DNA from: Patescibacteria group bacterium
GTDB lineage: Bacteria > Patescibacteriota > Gracilibacteria > Absconditabacterales > Absconditicoccaceae
Assembly: GCA_022705745.1 (NCBI GenBank)
Contig: JAKJDW010000009.1
Location: forward strand, 1 to 38,997
Length of the DNA stretch: 38,997 nucleotides
Direction of reading: 5' to 3'
Position numbers and translations under genes: made by a program. Every line of letters begins with the position of its first letter. The first letter of the stretch is position 1. The notes beneath the pieces were generated by a model. The model did not search any database and was not told where the DNA came from. It worked only from the letters and a program-made list of their open reading frames with translations. Shown here one piece after another: positions 12,445 to 29,556 of the stretch.

Positions 12445-13335
12445 ATGAAAAAATTGTACTTAATAGACGGATCATGATATTTATATAGAGCATATTATGC
12501 TTTTCCTGAAATGCCTGATCGTGATGGTCACAATATAAATGTAGTTTATGGATTTTTTCGTATGATTTTGAAATTATTTCACGATAAACCAGATTATTTT
12601 GTAATAGCACGAGATGATCCTACAAAAACACATAGACATGAAATTTATCCTGAATATAAAGCTAATAGAGTAAAAGCACCAGATGACTTCAAAGCACAAA
12701 TTCCGATTGTTCAAGAATTAGTAAACAAACTAAATATTCCCAATTTAATAATTCCTTGATATGAGGCTGATGATATTATTGCTTCAATAGTTAAAAAACA
12801 TAATGAAGATTCAGAAATTCTTTTTAATATTTTTTCTGCTGATAAAGACTTGAAACAATTACTAAATGATAATGTGATTTTTACAGATCCAAGCAAATGA
12901 ACACCGTACAAAACAAAGGATTTTATCCAAGAGTTTCTGTTTCAACCAGAAAATATTTTGGATTATTTGGCTTTAATTGGAGATAGTGCCGATAATATTA
13001 AATGAGTTCCTGGGATATGACCGAAGTGAGCTGGTACATTGATACAAAAGTATCAAAACATTGAAAATATATACCAACATATAGACGAAATAAGTGGTTG
13101 AATCAAAGAAAAATTACTAGATTGAAAAGAGGAGGCATTCAAGTCAAAAGACTTAATTTCTCTACTAAATGTCCCTGAGGTGAATACTATTGGTATAGAA
13201 GATTATAGATTTGATATAGATTTTAATAAATATAATGAAATTTTGGTAAAGGAGCAAAATTTTGTATCTATGGAAAAAGCAATTAAGGAGTTGAAAAATA
13301 AATTTCAAATGCCACAACAAACTAGTTTGTTCTAG
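12445..13335 (+). CDS. stand-alone 5'-3' exonuclease (PolA N-terminal type)
   Basis: A 296-aa protein covering the 5'-nuclease domain of DNA polymerase I with no polymerase domain. Metal-site and helical-arch landmarks in order: LIDGSGYLYRAYYA (Asp 8), HRHEIYPEYKANR, PGYEADDIIAS, SADKDLKQLL, then GDSADNIKGVPGIGPKGA, which is the helix-3-turn-helix DNA-binding loop. The usual FD motif of strand 3 reads ARDDPTKT. The family removes RNA primers and flaps. TAG is the stop. It is followed by the non-coding segment at 13336-13648. Confidence 0.93.
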
Positions 13336-13648
13336 TAAGTTGGAAAGTCTTTAAGTTTTCTAAAGCCTGCTTCGACATGGGATTTGAACCTCTTCATTGG
13401 AAATCTCTCTTTGCTTGAAATATACCAAGAGAGAATTTCACTTTGTTCAAAAAGGTAGATAATTTTTGTAAAAAAAATCTTTCAAAACACGGTTTTCTGA
13501 CTGGTTTACAGTTACCCATTTCTCTCAGACATAAAAATTCGTGCTTACCATGATTACTAGATATGGGTAGTATTTTACTTGACTGTATCAATGTGCAGGT
13601 GGAGATCTACCTCAACTGGTTGAAATAAAAAATGAGTATAAGATATAA
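13336..13648 (+). other. structured non-coding segment, possible RNA gene
   Basis: No coding frame of note lies between two real genes. Several stems are visible on the plus strand: CTTTA-agttttc-TAAAG just after 13350, a 12-bp stem with one bulge (13400-13411 with 13427-13439), AAAAC-acg-GTTTT and ACTGG-ttta-CAGT near 13490-13510, and TACCCAT with ATGGGTA near 13515 and 13563. The text 'GCTTCGACATGGGATTTG' near 13370 resembles the conserved 5' end of tmRNA. However, I find no matching T-arm or CCA end, so tmRNA is only a suggestion. Confidence 0.3.
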
Positions 13649-16168
13649 TTATCTTGTAATTCATTTTACATCCAAATGCTCCAAAAGTAGTTCTTCTAGG
13701 CATCTTCATAAATCTTGGGAATCCTTACATACAATTCCGAATCAGTTTTTATTTTCTTGTGGATCTGAGGATTTTTTCCCAAAAATAGGGACCATTGGCG
13801 CTCAATCTTTGGTGATTCAAATTCCGCAAACGATTACATTTTTTTCTCTGAGTCTTTTGATAGTGGCAATAGCATTAGGTTTAGCATTGTTAGAACTGTT
13901 AAACTCTCAATCTGAAAGAAGAAAAACAATTTCTTTATCTTTATCATTTTTTATGTTTTCAAGAAATGCCTCGTGTTGCTGTTTTGTTTGTCCGTCAAAA
14001 GGTTGAGATAATTGCTGTTCATAGAGTTCTAAGGCTTCATCTGCATTTGTGCTTGGTCAATCATCGTAATCAAGTCCTTCTCAAATTTTTATAACATCTT
14101 TGATAGTCATTTCAGTATTTCTTTTTTTTAGGATATCTACATCACTACCATTAAACATCATCACTTGGGTATTGATTTTTAGAGGTTCGCTGAGATTTTC
14201 GTTTTTTAGTTCTTCATTTAGCTGTTGCAAAGCATATATCATCAGCATGGTTGCATCTTTTTGATGTTGATTTTTGTTTTTTTGTCTCATACTCGATGAT
14301 CAGTCAGTGATGATCGTTAGATTAAATCCACCAGCGAGTTTTTTGGTTTTTTCTTTCCGAAACTCTTGTTTCATCATGATGGGATCGTGACTTCCAGATT
14401 TAATTTCTACGATTCCACTTACAAAACTATGAGGATCAAATTGTCCTCATTCCGAAAGTGGTTGTGGAGACTTTTCTTTTAGGCTTCTTTTTTTCCTTTG
14501 TTGAACGATTTTTGCAAAAATTTCTTTTGTGAGATAATCATAAATTGGACGCCCCTCTTTATCTTTCATTGATTTTAACTTTTCTTTGTATTGTTCTTCT
14601 TTTTTGATTTTTTCTTTGTATGTATCGAGAGTAGATTGATCCACATCATCTCATAAATCTCGTTCTTTTTTGATTTTTTCTTCCAAATTACGCTCTTCTG
14701 GGGATTTGTTTTTCTCCTTTTCGTATTTTTCAATCATATCTTCAATCATTTGTTGTAGTTGTTCGTTGTTTTGTTGCTGTTTTTCTTGTTGATTTTCGTC
14801 TTTTCATTTTTCCGCTTCCTTGGAAGAGTCTTGTTTCAATATTTCTTCTAATTGTTCATTGGTTGATTCTTGATTTTTTTCTTGGCTGTTTTGAGGTTTG
14901 AATTTCTCTGGATTGTCAAAAATACTCGGCAATGTCATTGGTTGAATATCTGGATTGTCTTTTATTGAATCTTGTTGCTGGTCAGAACCCTGTTCTTTAG
15001 AGTTTTGTTCTTGTTGATTAGAATTTTGCTCTTGTTGATCAGGGGTTTGCTGTTTTTGACTAGGATCTTGCTGTTGTTCACTGGAATTTTGTCATTCTTG
15101 ATTAGAATCTTGCTCTTGTTGATCAGGGGTTTGCTGTTTTTGACTAGGATCTTGCTGTTGTTCACTGGAATTTTGTCATTCTTGATTAGAATCTTGCTCT
15201 TGTTGATCAGGGGTTTGCTGTTTTTGACTAGGATCTTGCTGTTGTTCACTGGAATTTTGTCATTCTTGATTAGAATCTTGCTCTTGTTGATCAGGGGTTT
15301 GCTGTTCTTGACTAGGGTCTTGTCCTGTTTTATTAGAGTTTTGTTGTTTTGGATCAGGATCTTGTTTCTTTTGTGGGTTGGAATCCTGCTGTTGATCAGA
15401 CATTTTTTTCAGTTTTAGATAGTATTCTTCGTATAGCTCTACAATTGCGGGAAATTGTTCATCGTAGGTCAGATTTGGATCTTTTATTTTATCCAAAAGT
15501 CCTCAAGGAGCATTTACAAAATTCAGACAATTTTGGACTATACTGTCTACTTTGCAGGTCTCATCTTCAAGCATAGCTCATCTCAAACAAGTCCGAGCGA
15601 ATTGCTCATGCAAGGGTATTTTGGAAAAATTTCCACTTGGAATAGCGATATTTTGATAAATTTCTCTCCTGGAATTATCATATACAGGAGCTTGAATTTT
15701 GGTCGCATGGAAGTTTACATCAATATCTTCTAGTTGATTTTCAAATTCGTGAAATTCCATTCCGTATTTTTGTGTAATATGTTTATGAAATTCTTCCATT
15801 GAAAAGGTTTTGTTGTCATATTTGATTTTTTGAGTGCTTTTTTTGAGTTGATTGTGGTTGATGATATGATTGATCTTATGTAATACAAGTGCAGAAAGAT
15901 GGTTGATATCAAAGTGAAAATCTGATTTTATTCAGGTTTCTTTGAGTCTTTGTTCAGCGATCATCTGGTAAAGCTTTATTGCATATTCAGGATTAAAAAA
16001 AACTTTATTAACACCCGGAATCATTCGAGCGATTCATTCGTGTTTGGTATCGATTTGAAATTCTACTCAGGTTTGTTTGGTGATGATTGTCATATTTTCC
16101 ATAAAACGCTCAATAATTTCTTTGTTGTCGATTAATTCGGTTATTTCTGGTTTTTTTGGTTTGTTCAT
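13649..16168 (-). CDS. VWA-domain protein partner of a MoxR-like ATPase (CobT/DUF2201-like)
   Basis: An 839-aa cytoplasmic protein in three parts. Residues 1-260 are helical, with a degenerate zinc-peptidase-like motif HKINH (97-101, HExxH with Lys for Glu). Residues about 270-560 are a low-complexity Gln/Asp/Ser/Lys linker with four 28-residue tandem repeats. The C-terminus (about 610-839) is a von Willebrand A domain with an intact MIDAS DGSSSM at about 622-627 and VIVCGIGITKDGAPM near the end. VWA proteins of this type are substrate adaptors or effectors of MoxR/CobS-family AAA+ ATPases, and exactly such a gene lies divergently at 16852. Both have TTGCAA-type promoters. The target of the pair is unknown. 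Confidence 0.85.
15020..15335 (-). repeat. 84-bp in-frame tandem repeat (four units)
   Basis: Landmark positions 15041, 15125, 15209 and 15293 are exactly 84 bp apart. The units encode 28 residues each, starting QEGQNSSEQQQDPSQ, within the VWA protein linker. Units are nearly identical in DNA, so the array is young or homogenised and its copy number may vary. The reverse frames across it look open only because of the repetition. Confidence 0.9.
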
Positions 16169-16206
16169 GTTAGTTGTTTTTTAGTAAAAAATAATATTTA
16201 TACTTT

Positions 16207-16234
16207 ATTATAATTTTTTTTTGAAATTTTGCAA
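16207..16234 (-). promoter_or_regulatory. promoter of the VWA gene
   Basis: On the minus strand TTGCAA (16229-16234), a 16-nt spacer and TATAAT (16207-16212) precede the ATG at 16168 by about 39 nt. The same -35 hexamer is used for the divergent ATPase gene. A motif AGCCaaAATAATTTGCAA at 16255-16272 has a near copy at 16767-16784 overlapping the other promoter. Confidence 0.6.
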
Positions 16235-16299
16235 AAAATATGCGAGAAAAATTTAGCCAAAATAATTTGCAATTTTGTTTCTTTTCATTACAATTATAA

Positions 16300-16735
16300 T
16301 TGTATTACGACGAAAGAGATTCCGAAAAGTGTTTGGTGCTTTAGGACATCTCTTTTTTTTGTGATATAGGATCCAAAAATTAGTTTTGGAAAATTTACTG
16401 TTGATGGATTTCTCACATATGTTCGAAAAGACAACAAATAATGTGCCCCTTTATGAAAGGGGCTGTCCGAAGGACTGGGGATTTTTAAGTTTTTACTATA
16501 AAAAATCCTCCGCCCCGCAGAATTGCGGGACACCTCCTTTCAAAAAGGAGGACAAGATTCTTCACTTCGTTCGAAATGACAAGAAAATTCCCCCGCTTCC
16601 AGCATCCACCTTTTCAAAGGAGGAAAATATAATTGATGGATTTCTCGCTGTGTTTGAAATGACAAAGGATTGTCATTCTGAAGAGCTGAAGGCAACATGA
16701 GAATCCATTGTGTAGAAGGTTTGCAGAAAATGAAT
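16300..16735. repeat. intergenic repeat cluster between the VWA and ATPase genes
   Basis: It contains GCCCCTTT-atg-AAAGGGGC (about 16444-16462), CCGCCCCGCAGAATTGCGGG (about 16510-16529), phrases 'ttcacttcgttcgaaatgac' (about 16561-16580) and 'tttgaaatgacaaaggattgtcattctgaagag', typical of the dispersed repeats also found at 25 kb, and two near copies of 'atttctcacatat'. The apparent frames here are not genes. Confidence 0.65.
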
Positions 16736-16778
16736 TTCTCACATATATTTGAGAATGTAAAAAAATAGCCTCAAAAAT

Positions 16779-16807
16779 TTGCAAAAAAATCAGATTTCGT
16801 TTATAAT
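16779..16807 (+). promoter_or_regulatory. promoter of the MoxR-like ATPase gene
   Basis: TTGCAA (16779-16784), a 17-nt spacer and TATAAT (16802-16807), with the ATG 45 nt downstream. The hexamers equal those of the divergent VWA promoter, suggesting joint expression. Confidence 0.65.
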
Positions 16808-16851
16808 AGAGTAAAGTAAATTTTACTATTTTATTGTTTAACATATTATAA

Positions 16852-19542
16852 ATGAAAAAGACAACGCCAGTAAAAAAGAATTTACATAGCATTACGCATA
16901 ATGTTTCATCTGAGTACTCGGAAGAGAGACCTGATTTGGAAAAAGTGCGCAAGTTGCAAGTTTTTCGTAAAAGGTATGAAAAAATGAGTAATGATCAATT
17001 ACTAAATGCCTTGCTTGCATGAGATTTGTGATGAGAAACAAAAGAAGAAAACGAAGAAATAAAATCAGAATTGAGAGAACTTTTTTCAGATGAAAAGAAT
17101 ATTACTGAACTTAGAAAATTACTTCAAGAAAATAGTGAAGATGTGCAGAATTTGCTTCATGGATACAAAAAGCTGGCTGTTATCAAAAATAACGATAAAA
17201 AAATAGCAGAATTAGAATCCCAAAATCGTGAAATAAAACTCAATCTTTTTGCGAATGGAAAAACTTTGGAAACGGCAACAACAAGAACTCAGCAGAAATA
17301 TAACGAAAACAAAGCAAAGATTAAAAAATTACAGCGTGAAAATCAAAAACTTCTCAATACAAAAGAAATCGTGGCTGCATATGAATTGGATAAACTTGCT
17401 CAGTATTCAGTGCCATTGAGGAATAAAAAGCGTGTTTATACACCGAGTGTAAAGGAATATCAACAAAAAGTCAGTGATTTGATGCTGGATAGACAAAATG
17501 TTTTGCTTTCTGGACCCGTTGGGACATGAAAAACAAAGATGGCGAGAAAAACCTACCGTGAAATGCTGGATGCAAAATTTCAGGCAGGAACTATTTTTCA
17601 AGAAGATTACGAAACGATGAAAGCTAATCCGATTGTGAATGGAAATGAGGAATCCACACTTCGTGATATCAATTCCAAACCGTTACAACTTTCCAATAAG
17701 GCAGAAGACTGAAAATCAATTCAATATGGAACATGAATTTTAACTCGTTGTATGAAGAATGGATTGCCATTGATTATTGATGAAGCAAATCGTGTGCCAT
17801 CAAATTTTTTATCAGGATTAAAGTGTTATCTTTCTATGGAAAACTGAGATACCTATGAAGATACGATCACACAGGAAAGGCTTGAAGTACAATGACCATT
17901 ACAACTTATCCTGACTGCCAATGAGTGAAGTAGATATAGTCAAGATGTGAATCGTTTTCAGGATCAGATTACGAGAGAATTTACGAGAATACCTATTTTA
18001 TATTTTCCAAAAGAAGAGCTGTATGATGTTTTTAAGGCAAAACTTTATGAACCTCCGGGTTTTGCTTATGTAACAAAATATGATTTGACAGATAATTTGA
18101 AAAATCTTGTAGACGCGATAGATGAAGTCAATCAGCTGTATCTGAGTGGAAAAGAATATACAACGAGCTGAAATATTAGTGGAATGAGGATCAGATCCAC
18201 CGTAATTGATACACAAAGGGCATTGGAACTTGTCCAAAGATCAAAAATCTGAAGTAAAGAAACTTTTTGGCAGGAAATTAACGAAAATATTGTGAATTTT
18301 ATCAAATGAATAGAGCCAAATTGTGATGATGATCGTAAAATCCTCTGTTCAATTTTTCATGCAAAATGATTGCTGTGCAAAGAAAATATCCCTGAACTTC
18401 TCAAATGATCGGATAAACTCGAAAAATCAGATTTGGAATCACTTATCACGACTCCACAAAAATCAGTAGATAAAAATCACGGAGAGAGGATCACGATGCC
18501 ACGAATTTTTGCTACGACTCAACCCTACGCGAGATATAACGGGAAAACCTTTGATGAACTTGGTCGAGATAATGTTGAAACACAGATTCGTGCGGTGGCA
18601 AAAGATATTGTTGAATTAAATGTTTTCAACCCACTCAATGATGGTCAAATTTGTGAAATCTTGCAAGATTGTAGAAACAAGTCTGATTTGCAGAAAGTTC
18701 TATCAGAATTAGTCAAAAAAGCAGAATCTGAGTCAGATAAAATTACTGAAATTGTTGAAATCTTGGAATCAGCAGAAAAAATCAATTCATCACTTGTCCC
18801 AGCAGATTGGAGAGAGGGGGTAGAAAAGTTGAGAGTTCCAGAGAGTTATGAGAAAATCTCCACTTCTGGGTGGAGTGGTTCTGGGAGTATAGAGGAGAGG
18901 TTATCAGAAGTATTATCTGGTCTACCAAACGAAATCCAAAAGTTCCAACAAGCTCGAGAATCAACTATTGATTTAGATGAGGCGACCAAAAAAGAGATGA
19001 TTGCATTGAGAGATAAACTTCTCCAAGATGGGACGCTGACTTATCAAAATCATCCTGAATGATGAATTATCACCACCTTTAACGGACTTAGCTGAGTAGA
19101 AAATCCGAGATTCTATGATGCAACAAAGATCCTAAAACCAGCATTTGAAAAAGATGGTATTTTAGAAGAAAATGAATATACATTTTACTGACAAAAGCTT
19201 TCAATCCGAGCTAAATTAAAATGATTGAGATGAGATATAGACAAGTGGTCGGCAAAAAATACTGCTAATGCTATCAAAGAACAATGAACTAAATATTGAC
19301 TCAAAATGCACTCAGAAGAGGATATGAAAACATTGTTTGAAAAAATAAATACTAAAAACAGAAGTTGATGGAATGAAAATAAAAACATTGCATTTTGGTC
19401 CTTATGCACAGGATGTAAATGAAGGTATCGGCTTTCTAACTATTCTGGCTCGTCTCGTTCCTTTCTGGAATCCTATAGCGTCACTCGTTGTTCCCACCAG
19501 GACAGTGATGATGATGATTACTTCGCGGGGATTTTACTCTAA
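16852..19542 (+). CDS. MoxR/CobS-like AAA+ ATPase with C-terminal lectin-like tail
   Basis: An 896-aa protein. Residues 50-190 are charged and probably coiled-coil. The AAA+ core has Walker A GPVGTGKT (221-228, one Gly as TGA), Walker B PLIIDEANR (306-314), a sensor-1 region LILTANEGSRYSQDVNRF (about 350) and ITREFTR, typical of the MoxR/CobS/McrB group. A long helical region follows (450-830). The last 51 residues (846-896) start IAFWSLCTGCKGRYRLSNYS and end in an Asp run and YFAGILL. They resemble the C-type-lectin/FISUMP-like tails of variable proteins and differ in base composition from the rest (80 nt at 19424-19503 have only 15% A). It pairs with the divergent VWA gene, presumably to remodel a target protein. 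Confidence 0.85.
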
Positions 19543-19562
19543 ACTTTTTGTTCTCCCTTATC
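19387..19562 (+). repeat. duplicated 176-bp gene end, copy 1
   Basis: The last 51 codons plus stop of the ATPase gene and 20 bp beyond it. Copy 2 at 20972-21148 differs only by C/T at 19539 and one extra T in a T-run. Identity drops within about 15 bp upstream and immediately downstream. The two copies flank the AbiE operon in direct orientation. Confidence 0.95.
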
Positions 19563-19582
19563 CTCGCCCCGTAGGGGCGATT

Positions 19583-20248
19583 TTACTCCTCACAGAAATC
19601 AAGTTTCATTTTGATAATCCCTATCAGCTCAGATAGGAGTTTGTTTTTCATAAAAGTTTTTTGTTTCTCATCCAGTAACTCTCCCAATCCGTCCAGTATT
19701 TTATAATTTTTTGGTAATCATTCCAGCTTTTGCAGTATCTTTTGTAATAATGTTTTCAAACTTTGCCCTGTCCTTTCATAGACAATATCTTCATCAATAT
19801 CAAATAAGTTTGTGAAAAAGAAGTACACATCATAGATATCCCTGTTTGTAAATCTTTCAGATAATGCCACCAATTTGTTGGTAAATAAAGTCGCTTTGCT
19901 TTGTACTTTTATGTCTGTCCCATAAAAATCGACGATATCGTACTTGTTAGCTTTCCAGATTTTTCTACTAATATCTATTTTGATATTGGCCTCTTGATCT
20001 CCGTATGATAAAACCATTTTTGGTCAGATTTTTACTTTTCCATAGGGTTTCAAAAGCTCTGCAATTCAAGTATCAATACTCGTTTTTCAAAAAAAATCAA
20101 AATCCAAATCAGTAGAAAATCTATCTAGTCCATACAAAAAATAAGAAGCTGTTCATCACTTAAACGCTAATTGTGAGGCGTACTTACTAGTAAAAATGTC
20201 TTTGATGATTTTCATGAGTAAAACTCTGTGTTTGTCTCTATTAAGCAT
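19583..20248 (-). CDS. AbiEii-type nucleotidyltransferase toxin
   Basis: A 221-aa protein of the AbiEii/AbiGii family (DUF1814 nucleotidyltransferases). It has the signature LAFKGGTASYFLYGLDRFST then DLDFDFFG near residues 26-54, where GGT and the D-x-D pair bind the NTP and metal. The segment NKLVALSERFTNRDIYDVYF fits the family's conserved KLxALxxRxxxRDxYD block. Such toxins transfer nucleotides to tRNA or other targets and act in phage defence. The upstream antitoxin-like gene overlaps it by 8 nt. The unit lies between the two copies of the ATPase gene end. Confidence 0.88.
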
Positions 20249-20801
20249 TTTTGATTAATTTTTTAACTTGTAAAATAACTCTTTGATTGTATATTTGAGA
20301 AATATCTATTAATTTTTGCTTGTCTATTCATTCTAGATTGTCAAAATAATAATTTTGCGACAAATACAATCTATCGCAAATAGCTCTTTCTTTGCTAGCG
20401 ATCATATATCATCATTTATTTATCAATCAAATTGGATTGTACAAAATACTGTCTTTCAATTTCAAACATTTAAAAGTATATCAAAAAGCTTTCTTTTCAA
20501 TCGTATTATTGCTTGCTAAAAAAATAGTTTTCCCATAATCCTGAAAGATAATTCATTCTTTTTTCAAAACTGTCTCAAATGAGATGTAGCTTTGTGTCTT
20601 TATTTTTGATGCAAATTCAAAAATATCAAAATTTTTGAAAGCATAAATTCACTTATAAGGTCTGATAAGAATTCAAGCTTTGATTTGTCTATCCAAAAAA
20701 GATTTCAAAGTCTCTCTATTTTGAATTCAAAGAATAGACTGTAGGTTTTGATAGGTAAAGACTGTCTTTTTGGATTGCAGGAGCTTTCATATGTGACTCA
20801 T
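20241..20801 (-). CDS. AbiEi-type antitoxin / transcriptional regulator
   Basis: A 186-aa protein with an N-terminal winged-helix-like segment (TVFTYQNLQSILGIQNRETL, then LDRQIKAGILIRPYKGIYAF) and a C-terminal domain with the family block MIASKERAICDRLYL. AbiEi proteins neutralise AbiEii and repress their own promoter. It is the first gene of the operon, overlapping the toxin start by 8 nt, the usual AbiE order. A promoter at 20834-20861 precedes it. Confidence 0.82.
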
Positions 20802-20833
20802 TTTGTCTGTAGAATAGGTTTATAAACACCCCT

Positions 20834-20861
20834 ATTATAATGATATGTTTTGAAAAATCAA
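20834..20861 (-). promoter_or_regulatory. promoter of the AbiE operon
   Basis: On the minus strand TTGATT (20856-20861), a 16-nt spacer and TATAAT (20834-20839) precede the antitoxin ATG by about 33 nt. It lies inside the remnant frame that carries copy 2 of the duplicated gene end. Confidence 0.55.
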
Positions 20862-21127
20862 TGCGTTTTTTGAAAAAATACTGACTAAGGATTTATTTAA
20901 AAACTAGTGTGAAAACATCATTTGAAAAAATAAATACCCAAAGTGGAAACTCATGAGATGAAGATAAAAAGATTGCATTTTGGTCCTTATGCACAGGATG
21001 TAAATGAAGGTATCGGCTTTCTAACTATTCTGGCTCGTCTCGTTCCTTTCTGGAATCCTATAGCGTCACTCGTTGTTCCCACCAGGACAGTGATGATGAT
21101 GATTACTTCGCGGGGATTTTACTTTAA
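20840..21127 (+). pseudogene. second, truncated copy of the ATPase C-terminal domain
   Basis: With TGA as Gly the frame is open for 95 codons from ATG 20840 to TAA 21125-21127. Its first 40 residues align loosely with the ATPase segment just before the tail (KKYGLRIYLKTSVKTSFEKI against KYGLKMHSEEDMKTLFEKI); the last 51 residues are identical to the ATPase tail. It lacks the AAA+ core, so it is a remnant or a tail-only cassette. It starts inside the AbiE promoter region and there is no clear promoter of its own. Confidence 0.65.
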
Positions 21128-21148
21128 ACTTTTTTGTTCTCCCTTATC
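20972..21148 (+). repeat. duplicated 177-bp gene end, copy 2
   Basis: Direct repeat of 19387-19562 with one substitution and one T insertion, including the stop codon and about 20 bp after it. What follows (to 21190) is a GC-rich palindromic stretch of the dispersed type (GCGGGG-tttgcggggc). Confidence 0.95.
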
Positions 21149-21218
21149 TTTTCAGTATTGCGGGGTTTGCGGGGCAATATTTATAATCTCATCGCGAACG
21201 GAATTCAATTCCTAAGTC

Positions 21219-24200
21219 CTACCTCAGTTCAACTATAATCAATTGACTACCACCAGCCAAACTAGTTATCATAATACTATTGATCATTTCTTGATATTGT
21301 TGAATATTGTTTTGTTTTAATGTTGAATAAAGATTTATATATTGTACCAAAACAAATCTTTCATCTTGAGTTAGACTTGCTACCATAGCTGACACATTTT
21401 CTGGATTTGATAAAAACACATTCATAGCATTGATAATTTTTGTTTCATTTACTATTTTCCCATATACATCAGCTATATCTCATATTGCTTGCCCATTTGA
21501 AATCCTAGTATTAAATATTTGTGCAATTATATTTACCAAATCATCAGAATTTGCTAGAAATCTTGCCGCTATTAATTGGGCTCTAAGATATATCAATTCA
21601 TCTTTTGATCTTGCTCACACAAAGGAACTTAACTCTTCATCGCTCAAATTAAGTCCATATTTTGCTCATAGGTTGTTAGAATAAAATAGTTTTCCGTATC
21701 ATTCATCTACTAATTGAGTCAACATTAGTATAGAACCTTTTTCCATAATTTTTCCATTGATAGAATCAATTTTTGCAAAGAATCTGTGGAACAAGGACTC
21801 ATTTCCCTCTCACATAACTATTGTTGCTATGTTCGGATCTATTACTAAATACTTCAGGTTTTCAGATCTGAGTCTTTGATACATTTTACAAGTATTTTCA
21901 TCTGATCATTGTTCCCAAAACCAAGATAATCCACCATCAAATCTTATATTTTTTGGGTTATTCAAAAAGTATTGCAAATAGGTACCAGCAATCAAAACAC
22001 CATCTTTGTCGTCTCTGTCTTTTGTATACTCTATAAATTTATTGTACTGAGGAAATTGTAAATCAAATACATCTTTTTGTGAATATCATATTTTTATTTT
22101 TTCTTCTATTCTTAAATTATCCGTTATTTCCATCCCTTTACCCACACTTCCCTGGAACCATAAAAATGGTCAACTTGCTCATTGACTAGATATTCTGATT
22201 AGGTTAAAAAACATTTGAACCATCATCCAAAGTCCTAAAAATCCAAGGGTTAAAGTATACAGTAATCCATGATTTTCATCATTTTCACTATTTTTATTAT
22301 TTATTATCAAATCTTGGATAAACATACTAAGAACTAATATTGTCCACATTACTAAACCGATTCCATACCAAAGAATTCCTCATCCAATTACTCGCCAAAT
22401 GGCCCACCCAGTAGTAGTAGCAAAATTTAGAGCAAATAGTTTTTGATTTTTTCTTATAATAGAATAGATCAATCCGAATGCAGTAAAAACAAATATAAAC
22501 ATCCAAATAAATCCAATATCCGTATAATAACTACTTAAATTTTGTAATGATCGGTTGAATGTTATATTTCACGGAACAATGTATCTATATGGAACATATA
22601 TTTTTCACTTTTGCGTATAGATACTATGATTTTCATAATATTGTTTTAAATTTACTATATTTGTTCTCAAAGAACCCGAGTTTTCTTGGTATTCTTCCAA
22701 AGTTTTTATTATTAATTCTTCTGCTTGTGATCAAACTTTTATTTTTCCAGATTTTAAAATCTCTTCCAGTTTTTCTATATTACCAGCATTTATATAGTCT
22801 TTGTTTTTACATAAAAATCTAGCAGAGGAGTTTGCTCCATAACAAGTGTTGTTCTTTGGGTAAACGAGTCTTAATAGTCAGTAGGATAATGTCCTTTTAT
22901 CAGTAAATTCTTTCCAACCATATCATACATATCTACCGACATCCTCATTTCAAACAACAGCTTCTTTTTTTCATTCTTCCAGTTCTTCTTTTGTAAATTT
23001 TGTGTTTAAACATTGCTCCATAGATCATTCTTTGTTTATATTATCGCTTCTTAGTAATATTTCACGATCAGTTTCATTTTGTGATTCTAAGTTTTCGAAA
23101 CCATTTGTAGCCAATAATATTTTATTTTTTAATTCAATATTTTTATCTTCTTTACCATTGTTAGCTAAAAACAGTCCTTCTACGAAATTTTTTATTCAAG
23201 TATCTTTTGCTATAACTTGCTTGTACAATAATCGTGGTCATTTAAATATCAACAAACTTGCGAGCAAGGATATTCACCAAACAACTATATAAGAAAATAA
23301 TTTTTTTTTCGAAAATAATTCCTGTTTTGTGTTTTTTATAAATATTTGAATTAATCATATTAGAGTAATTATCGCTCAAATGATCACTATCCATTTTCAC
23401 ATAGCAACTCACATAAAATCAACTGCATTTACTGGTTGTAGTATTCACATCATACCCAAAGCTATTGTTCAAACTCAAATTCCAACTAGTGAATTTATCC
23501 ATAACACTAATAACAGTACCCCAAAAACTACAACATCTATAAATGCACTAGGTTTTGCCATACTTGCCAAAGCAAAGAACAATCCCGACATTACTAGATA
23601 TTTCAAAGATTCTTTGTTAAACAGTTTTTCAGTTTTATTTTCTGATATATAACGAATAAATATAAACCCAGAAAGTATTGCCAATATTGTTAAAGCCATT
23701 ACTCAAAGGTCTGTTTTATTGTCTACGAATACCAAGAATGCTCACATACCACTAGTCAGCCAAAGCAATAGAGCCATCCATCCGGTCCCCAAAGACAAAG
23801 ATTTATTCAACTGTGAGAGTTTTAATTTTCTTCCAAAATATTCTATAGCTTCATTTATCAATGCTAAACCAAAAAATAAAACAAAAGGTCCAGATAAAAA
23901 ATTCATACTAACAGCTACTGTATCTGGGGATAACCAGGATCAAGAAAATATTTTGCCAATACTAAACCAAAATGCTATAAATGAATGTCGCAAAAATGGC
24001 ATTGCACTAGCTGTTCATACATTACCCCAAATTATTCAAAAGTTTTCTGCTATTACTTTTGGTACATACAAGTATTCATGATTTGCATCCCAAGCAGTGG
24101 AATAAGGAATAAATGATAACTGAAATCAATAAAAGTAATATATGATAGAAAACATCATTAAAATTAACATAATCCATTGCCATCGATTTGTTCTCAAACT

Positions 24201-24821
24201 TTCTAGTTTAAATCCAGATAATAAATCGCCAACGATATCTTTATCCTGTTTTAATTCATTTCTCATAAGCCAAATCAATCAAGCTAATCCCAAGAATATT
24301 ATTCGAATTACTATTGGATGAAATAATCCAAATCACATTAAAACTTGGGTAAGTAATAGAATCACTCCCAACCCTAACCCAAAATTTAAAAATAATTCTT
24401 GAATTCTATTTTCTTTAAATTTTATTATTAATTTTGATATAAATCTTCCCAAGGCTAATGTTCACACTATAAAATATGCTCACAAAATAAACAACAATAG
24501 GTTGTTTATAATAAAAATTATAAATCCCGATCCCACAAAACCATCCTTAATTCATGTATGTAATAAGCCGAATACAATCAATCAAATGATCAAATAAATT
24601 ATAAATTTTTTTAGTGAAAATTTTTTGTTAAATATTAAGTATAAAATTGGAATTCAGGCGGATATAATCGAAGAAATAATCAATTTCCAATTTTCCCAAG
24701 ATGCAAACATAGTGTTGTAATAGGTGTGATTTGCCATAAATTCAGAGTAAATCTCTGCTCAAAACACCACCAAAACAAGTAAGATAATGACTAAAAAAAT
24801 TTTTTGAGTTAAATTTTTCAT
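21219..24821 (-). CDS. giant polytopic membrane protein, GT-C glycosyltransferase-like
   Basis: A 1200-aa protein with a hydrophobic first half (about a dozen membrane segments to residue about 560), a polar exported region (about 565-755), four or five further membrane segments (about 770-890) and a soluble C-terminal third. The loop after the mid-N-terminal segments reads AWDANHEYLYVPKVIAENFG, like the catalytic first-loop Asp/Glu region of GT39/GT83 polyprenyl-phosphate sugar transferases. The segment DRDDKDGVLIAGTYLQYF, then GGLSWFW, in the C-terminus is typical of large bacterial membrane glycosyltransferases. Function is inferred from topology only. Stop TAG; TGA-Gly is frequent. Confidence 0.65.
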
Positions 24822-24899
24822 AAATTTTTTATTAAATAATAAAACTATAACAGACAAACTTTTATAAATATTGTATAATATTTCAACACAAATTCAAAA

Positions 24900-25600
24900 T
24901 AAGCTAATAAAGCCCGCTCCACAATATTGAGAGGTTCATAAAGTTTGTAAAGTTATACACCCCCTTAATAAGGGGGGATGGGGGATTTTGTGATAAATGA
25001 GGGTTTTTTACTTAATCCCCTTACTAAGGGGGATCCCGCAATCCTGCCCCGCTGTTTAAGCGGGGCGAGTGGGGGAGAGCAACTCCCTTCTATGAAGGGA
25101 GACATTTTGTTGAAATTGGATTTCTCCGTGCGTTCACTTCGTTCACTTAGTCGAAATGACAAGCTGTATATAAATCCCTCTACATTAGAACAACTCCCTT
25201 TACGAAAGGGAGACAATAATTTTTGTCCTCCTTCTTTAGCCTCGCAATCCTGCCCCGCTGTTTAAGCGGGGCGAGCAGGGGTGGAGGATGTTAAATCCCT
25301 CTACATTAGAGCAACTCCCTTTGTCTTGATATGTCGGGACTCCACTTCGTTTCGCAAAAGGGAGACATTTTTTGTAAAGAGATTTCTCCGTGCGTTCACT
25401 TCGTTCACTTAGTCGAAATGACAGTCTGTGGCTCAAATCCCCCCTTTTTCCCTTGCTCCCCGATAGATCTCGAACAAAGTGAGATCCCGATATATCGGGT
25501 CACTTCGTTCGAAGGAGGACAACTCGCAACTTGTAACTTTTTAACTTTATGAACCCTGCAAGCGGGGCAAGCTTGCAACTTTATAAACTTTTATTTGCAG
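24900..25600. repeat. dense intergenic repeat block
   Basis: About 700 bp of reiterated units. The phrase 'tttctccgtgcgttcacttcgttcacttagtcgaaatgac' occurs at about 25121-25160 and 25382-25421. 'aatcctgccccgctgtttaagcggggcgag' occurs at about 25041-25070 and 25247-25276. 'ctacattagarcaactccctt' occurs at about 25180 and 25300 and also at 3.82 kb. There are stems CCCCTTA-ataag-GGGG, CTCCCTT-n-AAGGGAG (three times) and GATCTCGAACAAAGTGAGATC. Apparent 60-95-codon frames with SFRLSERSERTEKS-like sequence are products of these repeats. Confidence 0.75.
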
Positions 25601-25772
25601 TGAGTGGTAGGCAGGAAGCTCTTTATCCCTTCTTTTTATACAAAAACACAATATGTCATCAAAAATAATAAAAAAAACATAAAAAAACTTGAAATTAATG
25701 CCGATAAAGTTATAATTCATATGTCATAAAAGATTTGTTTTTGACAAAATTTTAGTAAAATATTTATCCAAA

Positions 25773-26003
25773 ATGAAATCAATATTCAACAATAGAATAT
25801 TTCGAGATATTACCAATGTTGACTACCAAAAACACAAGTCAGCAGTTATTTTTAGAGTTGTTAGATATTGAGATTTCCAAGATTTATTAAATTTAAAACA
25901 AATATATTCACAACAAGATATAAGGGATTTTACACAAAAAAGATCAAAAGAACTAGACCTATGAGAGCAAAAACTTTTATCTTTGTTGTATATGAATGCT
26001 TAA
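25773..26003 (+). CDS. small putative antitoxin of an AbiEii-type module
   Basis: A 76-aa, charged, soluble protein. Its stop overlaps the start of the nucleotidyltransferase toxin gene by 8 nt, the same arrangement as in the AbiE operon at 20.2 kb. The sequence (FRVVRYGDFQDLLNLKQIYS, then LGEQKLLSLLYMN) is helical and suggests a small partner protein. I do not recognise the family; the antitoxin role is inferred from position. A TTGACA at 25741 could be a -35 element. Confidence 0.6.
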
Positions 26004-26640
26004 ACTTGAAATTTTAGAAGCAAGGACCAAAACATTGTTCAATAAATTAGCAAAAGAATGATATGAGTTCCCTTTGGTATGAGGTACGGGCCTATCATTA
26101 CGAATATGACATAGAAAATCTATAGATTTAGATTTTGCTGTACCTAGATTTATTTCAAATAAAGACATAGAAGTTTTTAAAAAAGTTTCCAATAGGTTTG
26201 AAATAGTTTATCAAAGCAAAGAACAAATCAATATGTTTGTTGATTATGTAAAAGTAACCATATTTTCTTATTTTTATAAAAATCATTTTACTACCCAAAA
26301 ATATAAAAAGTTGAGAATTCGAGATCCAAAGGATATCGCAGTTTCCAAAGCTTTTACTATTGGTAGGAGAGAGGAGCTAAAAGATTATATTGATCTATAT
26401 TTTATCCTAAAAGAAAAAGTTCTTAGCTTGGATGAAATGATTAAATTAGCAAAAGAAAAATATCAATGAGAGTTTTCAGAAAAGCTGTTTTTGAAACAGT
26501 TACTTTTGATCAACGAAGTAGGGGAGTGTGAAATTAAGTATCTTAGGGATCCAGCCACTATTCCAGAAATAAATGATTTCTTCAAGAAATTAGTAAAGGA
26601 GAAGATGGAAGCTGATAAAAGTAAAAGTATTTCAGGTTAA
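25996..26640 (+). CDS. AbiEii/DUF1814-type nucleotidyltransferase toxin
   Basis: A 214-aa protein with the nucleotidyltransferase signature FPLVGGTGLSLRIGHRKSID then LDFAVP (residues about 25-50) and the C-terminal block IRDPKDIAVSKAFTIGRREE then LKDYIDLYF, like the KxxAxxxRxxxRDxxD block of AbiEii proteins. It is only distantly similar to the toxin at 19.6 kb, so these are two separate modules. It overlaps the small upstream gene by 8 nt. Its last 126 bp recur at 28457-28582, beyond the Fic gene. Confidence 0.8.
26515..26640 (+). repeat. duplicated 126-bp toxin 3' end, copy 1
   Basis: The last 41 codons and stop of the toxin gene. Copy 2 (28457-28582) has the same length, stays in frame and differs at about ten sites, mostly silent or conservative. 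The copies are in direct orientation on the two sides of the Fic region. Confidence 0.9.
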
Positions 26641-26814
26641 TGGTATTGTAGTAAAAAATCTATATTTTATATCAGTATATTAACAAAAATTGTATATTTA
26701 GTGATATGAAACACTAAAAATGAAAGGACTATTATACAAAAGTTCAAGAGTAGTGCTAAAGGCCCTATATTTTTACTGAATTTGGTGGATAATAATGAAA
26801 ATATTAAAAAAATC
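26641..26814 (+). other. AT-rich spacer with a short unassigned frame
   Basis: Between the toxin stop and the Fic 5' fragment. A frame from ATG 26720 reads MKGLLYKSSRVV and continues through one TGA into the duplicated segment to a TAG near 26880. Hydrophobic in the middle, no family recognised, and it may be a remnant. Confidence 0.25.
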
Positions 26815-26962
26815 TTGCTTTTTGGATGTAATTGGCTATAATTGGACATATAATTTATATCCAATCAATAAAAATTATGCATAGACTAACTAAAAGATTA
26901 GATTTTAATTTCAAGGATACAAATACTATTTTTCTCTTATTAGTGAGATTGATAAGTTAAAT
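26815..26962 (+). repeat. duplicate of the fic promoter and 5' end
   Basis: About 148 bp matching 27294-27442 with a few substitutions and one T lost in the T-run (5 against 6 T), covering the inverted repeat in front of fic and the first 28 codons. Confidence 0.9.
26877..26960 (+). pseudogene. truncated, frameshifted fic 5' fragment
   Basis: It starts MHRLTKRLDFNFKDTNTIF exactly like the intact fic gene, then the loss of one T shifts the frame to a TAA at 26958-26960. Sequence similarity to fic ends by about 26962. Confidence 0.85.
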
Positions 26963-27116
26963 TTATTATCGATTATATAATAAAGGATTTATTGAGTTTC
27001 CGCTAACCAGCGAGCTATATCAATGATTTCAATTCATCTATTTTGATAGGTGCTTTGTTTTGTTCTTGAAATAATTATCTTTGGATATCAATCCCTTATT
27101 TGGAGAAGTAGGTTTA

Positions 27117-27151
27117 TTTCCCAAAATCAATATTTTTTTCAATTTGGGAAA
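27117..27151. repeat. hairpin repeat TTTCCCAAA...TTTGGGAAA, copy 1
   Basis: Nine-base arms separated by an AT-rich loop. The whole 35-nt unit recurs at 27225-27260 with a 1-2 nt change in the loop. Confidence 0.7.
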
Positions 27152-27224
27152 TGGGAGTTTTAGGAGTAACCGACTGTTATTTTGTGTTTATGTAGAAAAA
27201 ACGAATCAAAAAACGATGCTTTTA

Positions 27225-27260
27225 TTTCCCAAAATCAATATTTTTTCTCAATTTGGGAAA
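27225..27260. repeat. hairpin repeat TTTCCCAAA...TTTGGGAAA, copy 2
   Basis: Second copy of the unit at 27117-27151, same orientation, lying 60 bp before the fic control region. The stretch 26963-27290 has no other feature I can support. Confidence 0.7.
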
Positions 27261-27319
27261 GTTTATTATTTCTATTTGAAAATATAAAAAAACTTGCTTT
27301 TTGGATGTAATTGGCTATA

Positions 27320-27344
27320 ATTGGATATATAATTTATATCCAAT
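27320..27344. promoter_or_regulatory. inverted-repeat operator candidate of fic
   Basis: Perfect 10-bp arms ATTGGATATA (27320-27329) and TATATCCAAT (27335-27344) with a 5-nt spacer, ending 11 nt before the fic ATG. Further TTGG-containing half-site-like words lie just upstream. The duplicate at 26.84 kb has the same element with one changed base. The winged-helix end of the Fic protein is a possible binder (inference). Confidence 0.5.
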
Positions 27345-27355
27345 CAATAAAAATT

Positions 27356-28417
27356 ATGCATAGACTAACTAAAAGATTAGATTTTAATTTCAAGGATACA
27401 AACACTATTTTTTCTCTTATTAGTGAGATTGATAAATTAAATACTATATTTAGCTTAGATACAAAACTTTCTCCACAAACTACAAAAAGATTAATGCAGT
27501 CTATTATTATTACTTCATCATGAGCATCCAATCGTATTGAATGAAATAGACTAACAAATGAAGAGATTGAAGCTCTTTATAAAAAGATAAATATAAAAAA
27601 TTTTAAGACAAGAGATCAGCAAAAAGTAGCATGATATGTTGAAGTACTGGAGATGATATTTGAATCATTTGAATGAATGAATTTTAATGAATGACTAATT
27701 TTGCAGTTGCATGAAATGATGCTAAAATATACTCCAGAAGCTACGAGGTATAGATGAGTTTGTAAGATTTGACCCAATAGAGTTGAAGCGAGAGATAAAG
27801 AATGAAAGTTTGTAAAAGTTATCTTTAATCCTACAGAGCCTGGGCTAACGCCAATTGAAATGCATGATTTACTTGAACGAACGCAAAAAAGTTTTGAAGA
27901 GAAAGAGCTTCATCCACTGCTGATTATATGAAATTTTTTATTTGAATTTCTTGCTATTCATCCATTCCAAGACTGAAATTGAAGGATAAGTAGGTTGCTT
28001 ACAAATTTACTACTACTACAACAATGATTCAACTTTATGTCTTATGTCTCTCATGAAAGTTTAGTAGAAAAAAGAAAAGTAGATTACTATATTTCTCTAT
28101 GAAAAGCACAACAAACACGGAAAACAGAAAAGGAAAATATTTTTTCACGAATGGAGTTTTTTTTACAGATATTAAAAGAACAAGCAAACCAAGCAATAAT
28201 GTTGGCAGATTGAAAGGATATCAGAATGTTTTTAACAGATAAACAACTTGTAGTCCGAGATCATATAAGCGAACATTATCCTTGTTCTCGTAAAGAAATT
28301 GTTGAAGCAACATGATTAGCAGAATGAACTGTAAAACAAATAATAAATAAGCTCATAGATATGAAAAAAATTATAAGGAGGTGAGAGTGAAGATGAGTAA
28401 GGTATGAAATTGTGTAA
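27356..28417 (+). CDS. Fic-family protein with N-terminal inhibitory motif and C-terminal winged helix
   Basis: A 353-aa Fic/DOC protein. The inhibitory helix motif is SSGASNRIEGN (about residues 52-62, S-x-x-x-E-G). The core has the active loop HPFQDGNGRISR near residue 202, intact in the catalytic His and the anion-binding GNGR, with three of its glycines or neighbours coded by TGA. The C-terminal helix-turn-helix reads RKEIVEATGLAEGTVKQIIN. The family AMP-ylates protein targets; the class II arrangement is self-inhibited. An inverted repeat lies just upstream. The gene lies between duplicated toxin ends and after a copy of its own 5' end. Confidence 0.93.
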
Positions 28418-28450
28418 TTAACTTAAGAAAAATGTAATTTTCAATAAATA

Positions 28451-28582
28451 ATGGAGGAAGTAGGGGAGTGTGAAATTAAGTACCTTAGGGATCCAGCTAC
28501 TATTTCAGAAATAGATGATTTCTTTAGAAAATTAGTAAAGGAGAAGATGGAAGCTGATAAAAGTAAGAGTATTTCAGCTTAA
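28451..28582 (+). pseudogene. orphan toxin 3' end (copy 2 of the 126-bp repeat)
   Basis: A 43-codon frame (ATG 28451, TAA 28580-28582) starting MEEVGECEIKYLRDPATI. It is the 3' end of the toxin gene at 25996 and has kept its frame although the rest of the gene is absent. It lacks the nucleotidyltransferase core. Confidence 0.75.
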
Positions 28583-28788
28583 ATAATTTTCGTTTTGTGC
28601 TAAACATTAATTTGGTTAAAAAGTTTTGCATTAAGACTTATATATTTAATACTTCATTATTTTAGATTTTTTTGACTTGCAAAAGGTTGGAATCTTTATA
28701 TCTTATAATTGTATAATTAGTTGTAAAATGATATAAAGCTTTAAGGGTTGAAAATTTGCTCTATCTTTATTTTTAGAAAATTAAAAAA
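28583..28788 (+). promoter_or_regulatory. upstream region of the glycan cluster
   Basis: About 200 AT-rich bases. TTGACT, then TTGCAA (around 28672-28685) and TATAAT-like words about 20-30 nt further on are compatible with one or more promoters for the long cluster, but spacing is not ideal for any single pair. Confidence 0.35.
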
Positions 28789-29556
28789 ATGAAAACAGTA
28801 ATCCTTGCATGATGACTCGGAACTCGTCTTGCCGAAGAAACTGTCATCAAACCAAAACCAATGGTAGAAATTTGATGAAAGCCTATTATTTGGCATATCA
28901 TGAAAATGTATTCATATTACGGTTTTAATGAATTTATAGTGTGTTTAGGTTACAAATGATATTATATCAAAGAACGATTTGCAAATTATTTTCTGCACAA
29001 TAGTGATGTAACAGTTTCTACTAAAGATAATTCTATAGAGGTCCATAATTCTCATTGTGAGGATCGAAAAATAACGTTAGTTGATACTTGAGATGCAACT
29101 ATGACAGGATGAAGGATCAAAAGAGTAAAAGATTATATTGATGGGGATGAATTTATGCTTACATATGGTGATTGAGTAAGTGATGTAGATATAAATAAAC
29201 TTCTTGAATTTCATAAATCACATGGGAAATTAGCTACACTAACAGCAATACAACCTGAATGAAAATTTGGGAGATTGGGTCTTGATTGAGATCAGATCAA
29301 TGAATTTGCAGAGAAAAAAGATAATGAAGATAGTTGGATAAATGGGTGATTTATGGTACTCAATAAAAAGGTTATTGATTATATAGCGGGTGATACTATG
29401 CCATTTGAAAAGGCTCCATTGGAAAATATTGCCAAAGATTGACAACTTATGGCATACAAACATACATGATTTTGGTTTGCCATGGATACATTACAAAACA
29501 AGAATACACTTGAAAGTTTATGGTCTACATGAAAGGCCCCTTGGAAAACATGGTAA
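28789..29556 (+). CDS. rfbF: glucose-1-phosphate cytidylyltransferase
   Basis: A 255-aa nucleotidyltransferase that makes CDP-glucose from CTP and glucose-1-phosphate. It has the nucleotide-binding loop LAGGLGTRLAEETVIKPKPM, in which both first glycines are TGA, then VEIGGKPIIWHIMK, LTYGDGVSDVD, and the C-terminal TGFWFAMDTLQNK. Length and motifs fit RfbF/DdhA. It is the first gene of a co-directional cluster with rfbG and rfbH. Confidence 0.93.

What the first reader, a model, noticed from the sequence alone, without database searches (positions are those of the whole stretch)
19387..21148. AbiE toxin-antitoxin operon bracketed by near-identical 176/177-bp copies of the upstream gene's 3' end
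The end of the ATPase gene (51 codons, stop, 20 bp) is repeated in direct orientation on the far side of the AbiE operon with one substitution and one indel. Upstream flanks are similar only at protein level. The toxin module thus sits between duplicated gene ends, leaving the host gene intact. This looks like insertion by recombination at a gene end, or like a cassette exchanged through homologous tails, and is not a known transposon structure that I recognise.
Basis: partly seen in the sequence, partly recalled or inferred. Interest (0 to 1): 0.8.

Follow-up and report, generated by a model that had tools for sequence, protein, structure and literature searches.

The report
Toxin genes between duplicated gene ends
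A small toxin-antitoxin operon in an uncultured bacterium sits between two nearly identical copies of its neighbour gene's last stretch, and a few other toxin- or defence-like genes in the same genome are bracketed in a similar way, which suggests that such genes move by ordinary recombination between shared gene ends rather than by a transposon.

Summary
The last 51 codons, stop and about 20 bp of an AAA-ATPase gene (19387-19562) recur at 20972-21148 with one substitution and one indel, bracketing an intact-looking AbiEi/AbiEii operon. Upstream, the copies stay homologous for 96 bp more, at 67 of 96 bases.
The ATPase is not a conserved resident gene. In two relatives (G016, G025) the genes flanking the 13.3-21.2 kb block abut; VWA, ATPase and AbiE are absent there.
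The pattern recurs. In the half of this genome that I read, six local two-copy repeats, this one included, bracket a gene of at least 80 aa: AbiE, Fic, a SIR2 protein, a HicA-like toxin, a large helicase, one unknown. The HicA case has the same mosaic anatomy. Twenty evenly spaced stretches (400 kb) of three single-contig relatives have none.
Best reading: homologous recombination or gene conversion between gene tails, without a recombinase of its own. It is a variant of 'insertion with long target duplication', known for restriction-modification genes, and of recombinase-less circularizable segments. Excision and movement were not shown.

The parts
13649..16168 (-). 839-aa protein with a weak VWA-like match (E 0.068) and a 21-nt tandem repeat inside; left member of the imported block
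   Evidence: Pfam; repeats; absent between the flanking genes of G016 and G025
16852..19542 (+). 896-aa AAA_5-type ATPase whose 3' end is duplicated
   Evidence: Pfam AAA_5 23.8 bits over cut-off 22; distant partial matches in 11 other genomes of 353 searched (own included), none reaching the tail
19387..19562 (+). repeat copy R1: last 51 codons, stop and about 20 bp of the ATPase gene
   Evidence: G+C 43% against 29% for the window
19565..19584 (.). hairpin followed by a short T run between the convergent ATPase and AbiEii genes, terminator-like by eye
   Evidence: sequence printed; no terminator scan was run
19583..20248 (-). AbiEii nucleotidyltransferase toxin, motifs I-IV present
   Evidence: PF08843 1.5e-16, PADLOC AbiEii 2.6e-50, motif scan
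20241..20801 (-). AbiEi antitoxin, overlapping the AbiEii start by 8 bp
   Evidence: PADLOC AbiEi 2.4e-40; AbiEi_4 20.8 bits, below its cut-off 25
20810..20839 (.). 9-nt inverted repeat (89%) upstream of AbiEi, possible operator
   Evidence: one of 13 short inverted pairs; may be chance
20840..21127 (+). 95-aa ORF that reads through repeat copy R2; remnant of a second, diverged ATPase end
   Evidence: no convincing relative in 352 other class genomes
20876..20971 (+). diverged homologous stretch upstream of R2 (67 of 96 bases equal to 19291-19386)
20972..21148 (+). repeat copy R2
21219..24857 (-). conserved 1212-aa membrane protein, right flank of the block
   Evidence: matched in 29 of 49 genomes, own included; next to the exonuclease gene in G016 and G025
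12445..13335 (+). 5'-3' exonuclease (PolA N-domain type), left flank of the block
   Evidence: NCBIfam; synteny
25996..26640 (+). second AbiEii-family gene (with DUF6922 ORF 25773-26003 before it); its last 126 bp are duplicated
   Evidence: PF08843 1.6e-10; DUF6922
26515..26640 (+). gene-end repeat, first copy, ending exactly at the stop codon
26796..26962 (+). copy of the Fic gene's 5' end
   Evidence: blastn 96.4% to 27277-27442
27311..28417 (+). Fic-family gene (first ATG in frame 27356), cargo between the second AbiEii gene and the copy of its end
   Evidence: PF02661 7.8e-15, SoFic 4.5e-36
28457..28582 (+). gene-end repeat, second copy (93% to 26515-26640; 5 silent and 4 replacing differences)

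Best explanation
The AbiE operon is a recombinase-less cassette that came to lie between two alleles (or paralogues) of the same gene end. Shown: two direct copies of a gene end bracket the operon; the last 177 bp are 99% alike while the preceding 96 bp are 70% alike; no recombinase or terminal inverted repeat was found; the whole VWA-ATPase-AbiE block is missing from two relatives with the same flanks; a similar bracket recurs with other cargo, some of it toxin- or defence-like, and with unrelated repeat sequences. Inferred: incoming DNA that carried AbiE and a diverged ATPase end recombined with the resident ATPase end, by a RecA-type single crossover of a circle or by transformation with one homologous arm. 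This left the intact ATPase gene (R1), the cargo, and a truncated second end (R2), and the crossover or later gene conversion made the last 177 bp alike. The direct repeats then permit loss of the cassette by recombination and, in principle, its return in any genome that has the same tail. The AbiE pair itself would act as a type IV toxin-antitoxin, which favours its retention.
For: Tail 99% against upstream 70% with a sharp change of identity at 19387/20972; upstream parts aligned as proteins score 76 against a maximum of 38 in 500 shuffles. C12 repeats the anatomy: a HicA-like toxin between two antitoxin-like genes (weak ribbon-helix-helix-type matches) with near-identical ends (157 bp, 5 differences, reaching 43 bp past the stop) and upstream parts homologous as proteins (score 114, shuffle maximum 59). 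The copies of the second AbiEii end differ by 5 silent and 4 replacing changes (Fisher P 0.01), as if the second copy came from another functional allele. Nineteen repeats (18 of the 19 own pairs and one of G001) show no cross match at E 1e-3, which fits homology-driven and not site-specific recombination. A ComEC-family uptake gene is present in the own genome and in 28 of 31 genomes searched, own included. Survey counts.
Against: No relative shows the stages: the tail has no convincing match in 352 other class genomes, so donor, recipient and empty site with one tail are all unseen. At C6 and at the Fic locus the second copy has no homology upstream of the repeat, which fits a plain target duplication as well. 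Two of the six private cases are not gene 3' ends: the helicase repeat holds the 5' part of an HTH gene and the C11 292-aa case is intergenic at one side and a gene start at the other. AbiE genes elsewhere are mostly not bracketed: of 33 AbiE stretches read (one own; several cut short by contig ends), two have a bracketing pair of at least 60 bp and 80% (L057, L077). Circles and excision cannot be seen in an assembly.
Confidence: 0.5

Rival explanations
1. Insertion with long target duplication, as described for restriction-modification genes: AbiE inserted at the ATPase end and the insertion itself duplicated the target; the duplicate is decaying.
For: Direct repeats of about 100-200 bp around an addictive gene pair with no recombinase match the published pattern (PMC3874152 passages; PMC1643837 passages). 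The C6 SIR2 cassette fits: G001 has one CopG match, aligned with the own locus for 2878 bp up to the CopG end, and no SIR2 gene at that place; at one informative site the first copy has the G001 base.
Against: At AbiE the duplicate continues upstream for 96 bp at 70% identity beside 177 bp at 99%, and C12 does the same; a single target duplication would be equally old throughout.
Confidence: 0.25
2. Old tandem pair of ATPase genes with AbiE between them; the second copy was deleted down to its end, and gene conversion keeps the last 177 bp alike.
For: R2 lies in frame in an ORF, and its upstream part is diverged in a weakly coding-like way (pS 0.54, pN 0.26, P 0.07).
Against: No such pair was seen in 353 class genomes searched with the ATPase or the tail, own included, and similar brackets with five other cargos would need such a history each time.
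Confidence: 0.15
3. Assembly artefact: strain variants or a repeat collapsed and were joined wrongly in a fragmented draft genome of 66 contigs.
For: The draft is fragmented, and 400 kb of evenly spaced stretches of three single-contig relatives show no such pair.
Against: The eight private pairs run from 77 to 346 bp with 93-100% identity, not one fixed overlap length, and in one of them the differences are mostly silent. A Fic gene is bracketed by an 87-bp pair (90%) in G006, a single-contig genome.
Confidence: 0.06

Closest known systems
Insertion with long target duplication (restriction-modification genes, Helicobacter pylori; Nobusato 2000, Furuta 2010, as cited in PMC3874152 and PMC1643837)
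   Same: Addictive gene unit, no recombinase, direct repeats of the order of 100 bp made of target sequence
   Different: Cargo is AbiE, Fic, SIR2 or HicA-like, not restriction-modification; at AbiE and HicA the repeat continues upstream as a diverged homologue. The two original papers were not read (Furuta 2010 is not held; Nobusato 2000 not tried)
Unconventional circularizable structures (UCS; PMC7843796 passages)
   Same: No recombinase gene; long direct repeats that contain gene sequence flank the cargo
   Different: In that paper the UCS was shown by PCR of the circle and carries resistance genes inside a transposon; here no circle could be tested, and the repeats are shorter
Elements integrated at gene 3' ends (SCCmec, tRNA-end islands; recalled, no call)
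   Same: Host gene end restored, direct repeats left
   Different: Those carry a site-specific recombinase and one att sequence; here neither was found
AbiE type IV toxin-antitoxin (PMC3985639 passages)
   Same: Gene order, overlap, NTase motifs I-IV
   Different: Only in its bracketed setting

Membership tests
AbiE type IV toxin-antitoxin | AbiEii NTase motifs I-II (hG[G/S]...DhD), III (KLxAaxxR-like) and IV (+DxxD) | tested here: met
   KGGTASYFLYGLDRFSTDLDFD, KLVALSER, RDIYD; definitions from PMC3985639 passages. The residue before GG is Lys, not hydrophobic, and motif III has Leu where an aromatic is given
AbiE type IV toxin-antitoxin | AbiEi-family partner gene upstream in a bicistronic operon | tested here: met
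   8-bp overlap, PADLOC AbiEi 2.4e-40; Pfam AbiEi_4 and NCBIfam AbiEi below their cut-offs. Co-transcription not tested
AbiE type IV toxin-antitoxin | Operator inverted repeats upstream of abiEi | tested here: inconclusive
   9-nt imperfect inverted repeat 20810-20839 among 13 short ones
AbiE type IV toxin-antitoxin | Toxicity neutralised without contact | not testable with these tools
   needs expression
Insertion with long target duplication | Direct repeats of about 100 bp of target sequence around the insert | tested here: met
Insertion with long target duplication | Relative with one copy and no insert at the same site | tested here: not met
   for AbiE: G016 and G025 lack the ATPase too. 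For the C6 sister case met on the left flank only
Insertion with long target duplication | Repeat uniform along its length, as one event gives | tested here: not met
   99% then 70%; the uniformity criterion is my inference
Unconventional circularizable structure | No recombinase; long direct repeats flanking cargo | tested here: met
Unconventional circularizable structure | Circular form and restored single-repeat site detected | not testable with these tools
   needs PCR or reads
Transposon or insertion sequence | Transposase and terminal inverted repeats | tested here: not met
   only AbiEi and AbiEii as ORFs of at least 80 aa between the repeats; none of the five inverted pairs of 30 nt or more lies at the ends; shorter terminal repeats were not sought
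Site-specific integrative element at a gene end | Integrase in the element and a common att core | tested here: not met
   no integrase; 19 repeats compared, no cross match at E 1e-3; a core of a few bases would escape this test

The most novel reading that the evidence does not exclude
In this lineage toxin-antitoxin and defence genes move as 'tail cassettes': each carries as its only homology arm the end of the gene beside which it docks, recombines there without any recombinase, leaves the docking gene intact, and can leave again through the duplicated tail. Competent, defence-poor episymbionts would thus shuffle defence genes by homologous recombination at gene ends.
Probability: 0.25. Interest if true: 0.75.

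Novelty: new variant of a known kind. Interest (0 to 1): 0.5.

Why it matters
How small toxin and defence modules move when no mobile element carries them is an open question. A genome with several such modules, each between private duplicated sequences and two of them with mosaic tails, gives concrete junctions to test. It would extend a pattern described for restriction-modification genes in Helicobacter to toxin genes in an ultra-small, recoded lineage.

Tried and rejected
1. A diversity-generating or FISUMP-type C-terminal domain as source of the G+C-rich tail. PF09603 has no match in the own genome. It matches in 11 of 59 genomes searched, own included without a match, but the tail matches none of the 20 fetched FISUMP loci beyond noise, in DNA or six frames (best E 0.062); the two copies also do not differ at A positions. 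Rejected.

2. The tail as a mobile repeat: no third copy in the own genome, none in 98 relatives by DNA, none in phages (protein and DNA) or plasmids (DNA), no exact 38-base piece in viral contigs and no exact 27-base piece in genome contigs. Rejected.

3. An RNA element: no Rfam family at gathering score in 13000-29000.

4. AbiE always bracketed: no. One search gave 46 AbiEii places in 24 of 59 genomes; I read stretches for 33 places outside the window, several of them cut by contig ends. Two have a bracketing pair of at least 60 bp and 80% (L057 and L077); weaker pairs (L054, L060, L069) were not counted. The L077 repeats occur in several copies there.

5. Naming the lineage through genome contigs: no relative found.

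6. PADLOC gives no family for the ATPase, the VWA-like protein or the SIR2 protein.

7. Viral relatives of the ATPase: none confirmed.

Rows dropped before counts. In the survey, pairs inside one ORF were dropped: 3 own, 1 in G027, 2 in the AbiE stretches. 'Private' means just two matches in the own sequence read, about half of the genome; eight own pairs are private, six with an ORF of at least 80 aa between the copies. The other two are the Fic 5'-end pair and a 77-bp pair on C20 next to an IS1595-type transposase gene. The five other own pairs with cargo (C2 with DUF559, C9, C16, two on C11) are dispersed repeats and not counted as cassettes. This split was made after seeing the data. One own pair without cargo (L090 1-156/463-618) was left out of the comparison. 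In one search all AbiE stretches were read with code 25, also those of genomes that seem to use the standard code.
Full report
WHAT IS THERE. Under code 25 the ATPase ORF runs 16852-19542. Its last 51 codons, the stop and about 20 bp recur 1585 bp downstream with one silent substitution and one extra T. The own-genome search finds just these two copies. Between them lie an AbiEii gene (PF08843 1.5e-16; PADLOC 2.6e-50) and an AbiEi gene (PADLOC 2.4e-40) on the minus strand, overlapping by 8 bp. The four AbiEii motifs given in PMC3985639 (passages) are present with small departures, so the toxin looks intact. The repeat has 43% G+C in a window of 29%.

A MOSAIC REPEAT. The repeat is not uniform. 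The last 177 bp are 99% alike; the 96 bp before them agree at 67 positions and stay in frame. As proteins the upstream parts align with score 76 against a maximum of 38 in 500 shuffles. The alignment shows no clear similarity further upstream. The second copy is therefore the truncated end of a diverged ATPase allele or paralogue whose last part has been made like the first copy, or the reverse. The differences upstream are only weakly coding-like (pS 0.54, pN 0.26, P 0.07).

THE ATPASE IS NOT THE RESIDENT GENE. The membrane-protein gene to the right (21219-24857) has matches in 29 of 49 genomes, own included. I read its surroundings in ten relatives. In G016 and G025 the exonuclease gene that lies left of the block in the window abuts the membrane-protein gene, with 94 and 54 bp between the ORF ends; in G020 the order is the same with one small ORF between. 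In the stretches of the other seven, G001 included, the exonuclease gene has no match. The whole interval of about 7.9 kb (VWA-like gene, ATPase, AbiE, second tail) is therefore absent from two relatives with conserved flanks. The ATPase has distant partial matches in 11 other genomes of 353 searched, none reaching the tail, and the tail itself has no convincing match in 352 others (53 of 353 genomes have something at E 1 or better, own included, best other E 0.0046 per genome).

SIMILAR BRACKETS ELSEWHERE. In the same window the last 126 bp of a second AbiEii-family gene (25996-26640), ending at the stop, recur at 28457-28582 behind a Fic gene, and the Fic gene's 5' end recurs upstream. I then read 528 kb of this genome, window included, and listed direct repeats of at least 60 bp and 80%, 0.3-8 kb apart. 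There are 22 pairs, 19 not inside one ORF, 11 with an ORF of at least 80 aa between them. Six of the 11 are private two-copy repeats within the sequence read: AbiE; Fic; a SIR2-domain protein behind a CopG-antitoxin-like gene (C6, 196 bp, 3 differences); a HicA-like toxin (PF07927, 25.3 bits, just below its cut-off 27) between two antitoxin-like genes (C12); a 2034-aa helicase beside Cas12a and Cas1 (C11, 346 bp, 99%); and a 292-aa protein without a family (C11, 90 bp, 100%). In the first four the first copy is a gene 3' end. In the helicase case the repeat holds the 5' part of an HTH gene, and in the last it is intergenic on one side and a gene start on the other. For the helicase, PADLOC lists DpdF, PsyrT and GajB models, but NCBIfam prefers the RecQ family, so its defence role is uncertain. 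The CopG-like gene is just below its Pfam cut-off (27.8 of 28). The other five pairs with cargo are dispersed repeats. Whether toxin and defence genes are over-represented was not tested against the rest of the genome.

CONTROLS. The same scan found no pair outside a single ORF in 400 kb of evenly spaced stretches of three single-contig relatives, none in 199 kb of 12 stretches mostly around the membrane-protein gene, and none in 200 kb of E. coli K-12. It found 3 pairs in 295 kb of the same-genus genome G001 (which shares three stretches with the 199 kb set), 1 with cargo, and 12 in 387 kb around AbiE genes of other relatives, 11 with cargo, partly dispersed families. Two of those 12 lie in G006, one of the three single-contig genomes (L071). 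So such pairs are frequent in this genome and occur near AbiE genes elsewhere, but are not spread evenly over the family's genomes. Own contigs sampled first were mostly small; further stretches of the two long contigs gave 7 more pairs.

TWO INFORMATIVE SISTERS. At C12 the two antitoxin-like genes share their last 37 codons, the stop and 43 bp beyond it (5 differences in 157 bp), while their upstream parts are homologous as proteins (score 114, shuffle maximum 59) and much less alike as DNA. This is the anatomy of the given finding at another locus. At C6 the same-genus genome G001 aligns over 2878 bp (75.7%) up to the end of the CopG-like gene, has one match of that gene and no SIR2 gene there; beyond it the neighbours differ. 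This is an empty site on one flank.

HOW IT MOST LIKELY WORKS. Repeats without a common sequence (no cross match among 19), no recombinase, mosaic tails at two loci and an uptake gene (ComEC family) point to homologous recombination between gene ends, as a circle crossing over once or as transforming DNA with one homologous arm. In pneumococcus, transforming DNA that carries a repeat can give duplications, there of about 100 to 900 kb (PMC3784515 passages). Shown are the anatomy, the recurrence and the absence of the block in two relatives. Inferred are the donor, the crossover and any excision. Plain insertion with long target duplication explains C6 and the Fic case as well.

KNOWN RELATIVES OF THE IDEA. 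Restriction-modification genes insert with target duplications of the order of 100 bp (PMC3874152 passages; PMC1643837 passages). Recombinase-less segments between long direct repeats can excise as circles (PMC7843796 passages). My searches for toxin-antitoxin, AbiE or Fic genes with such repeats and for Absconditabacteria, Gracilibacteria or Patescibacteria with repeats or islands showed 20 of 67, 8 of 8, 20 of 44 and 20 of 182 papers, none of them by title or shown abstract on this pattern. Beyond these listings I saw passages of one (PMC12455944), so this is weak evidence of absence.

VERDICT.

Noticed in passing
window 14949-15410: A tandem repeat of period 21 nt runs over about 460 bp inside the VWA-like gene (13649-16168, minus), a 7-residue protein repeat.
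   Followed up: no
L191 7600-15265 (own contig C11): Type V-A CRISPR locus: Cas12a (PADLOC 3.6e-186), Cas1 (2.9e-104) and an array with 30 exact copies of an 18-nt repeat end, next to the helicase gene bracketed by 346-bp repeats.
   Followed up: partly
L203 12788-14017 (G001 contig C4): A KsgA/Erm-like rRNA dimethylase gene (PF00398 2.6e-31, below the cut-offs of all 16 NCBIfam models listed) lies between 145-bp direct repeats of 99% in the same-genus genome.
   Followed up: partly
L071 3606-5004 (G006, single-contig genome): A Fic gene is bracketed by 87-bp direct repeats (90%) upstream of a polysaccharide flippase-type gene.
   Followed up: partly
L078 17-4729 (G006): A 1570-aa ORF holds two 452-bp internal direct repeats that are 99% alike.
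   Followed up: no
window 25037-25430: Several G+C-rich short direct repeats, with inverted partners at 1221-1278, form an intergenic patch that looks like dispersed REP-like elements.
   Followed up: no
G001, G004, G015, G024, G032: Several FISUMP-like matches per genome, many with short reported open frames, suggest a multi-copy and perhaps decaying family; the own genome has none.
   Followed up: no
L099 734-2388 (own contig C20): A 77-bp direct repeat pair (100%) lies beside an IS1595-type transposase gene, so not every private pair is free of mobile-element genes.
   Followed up: no
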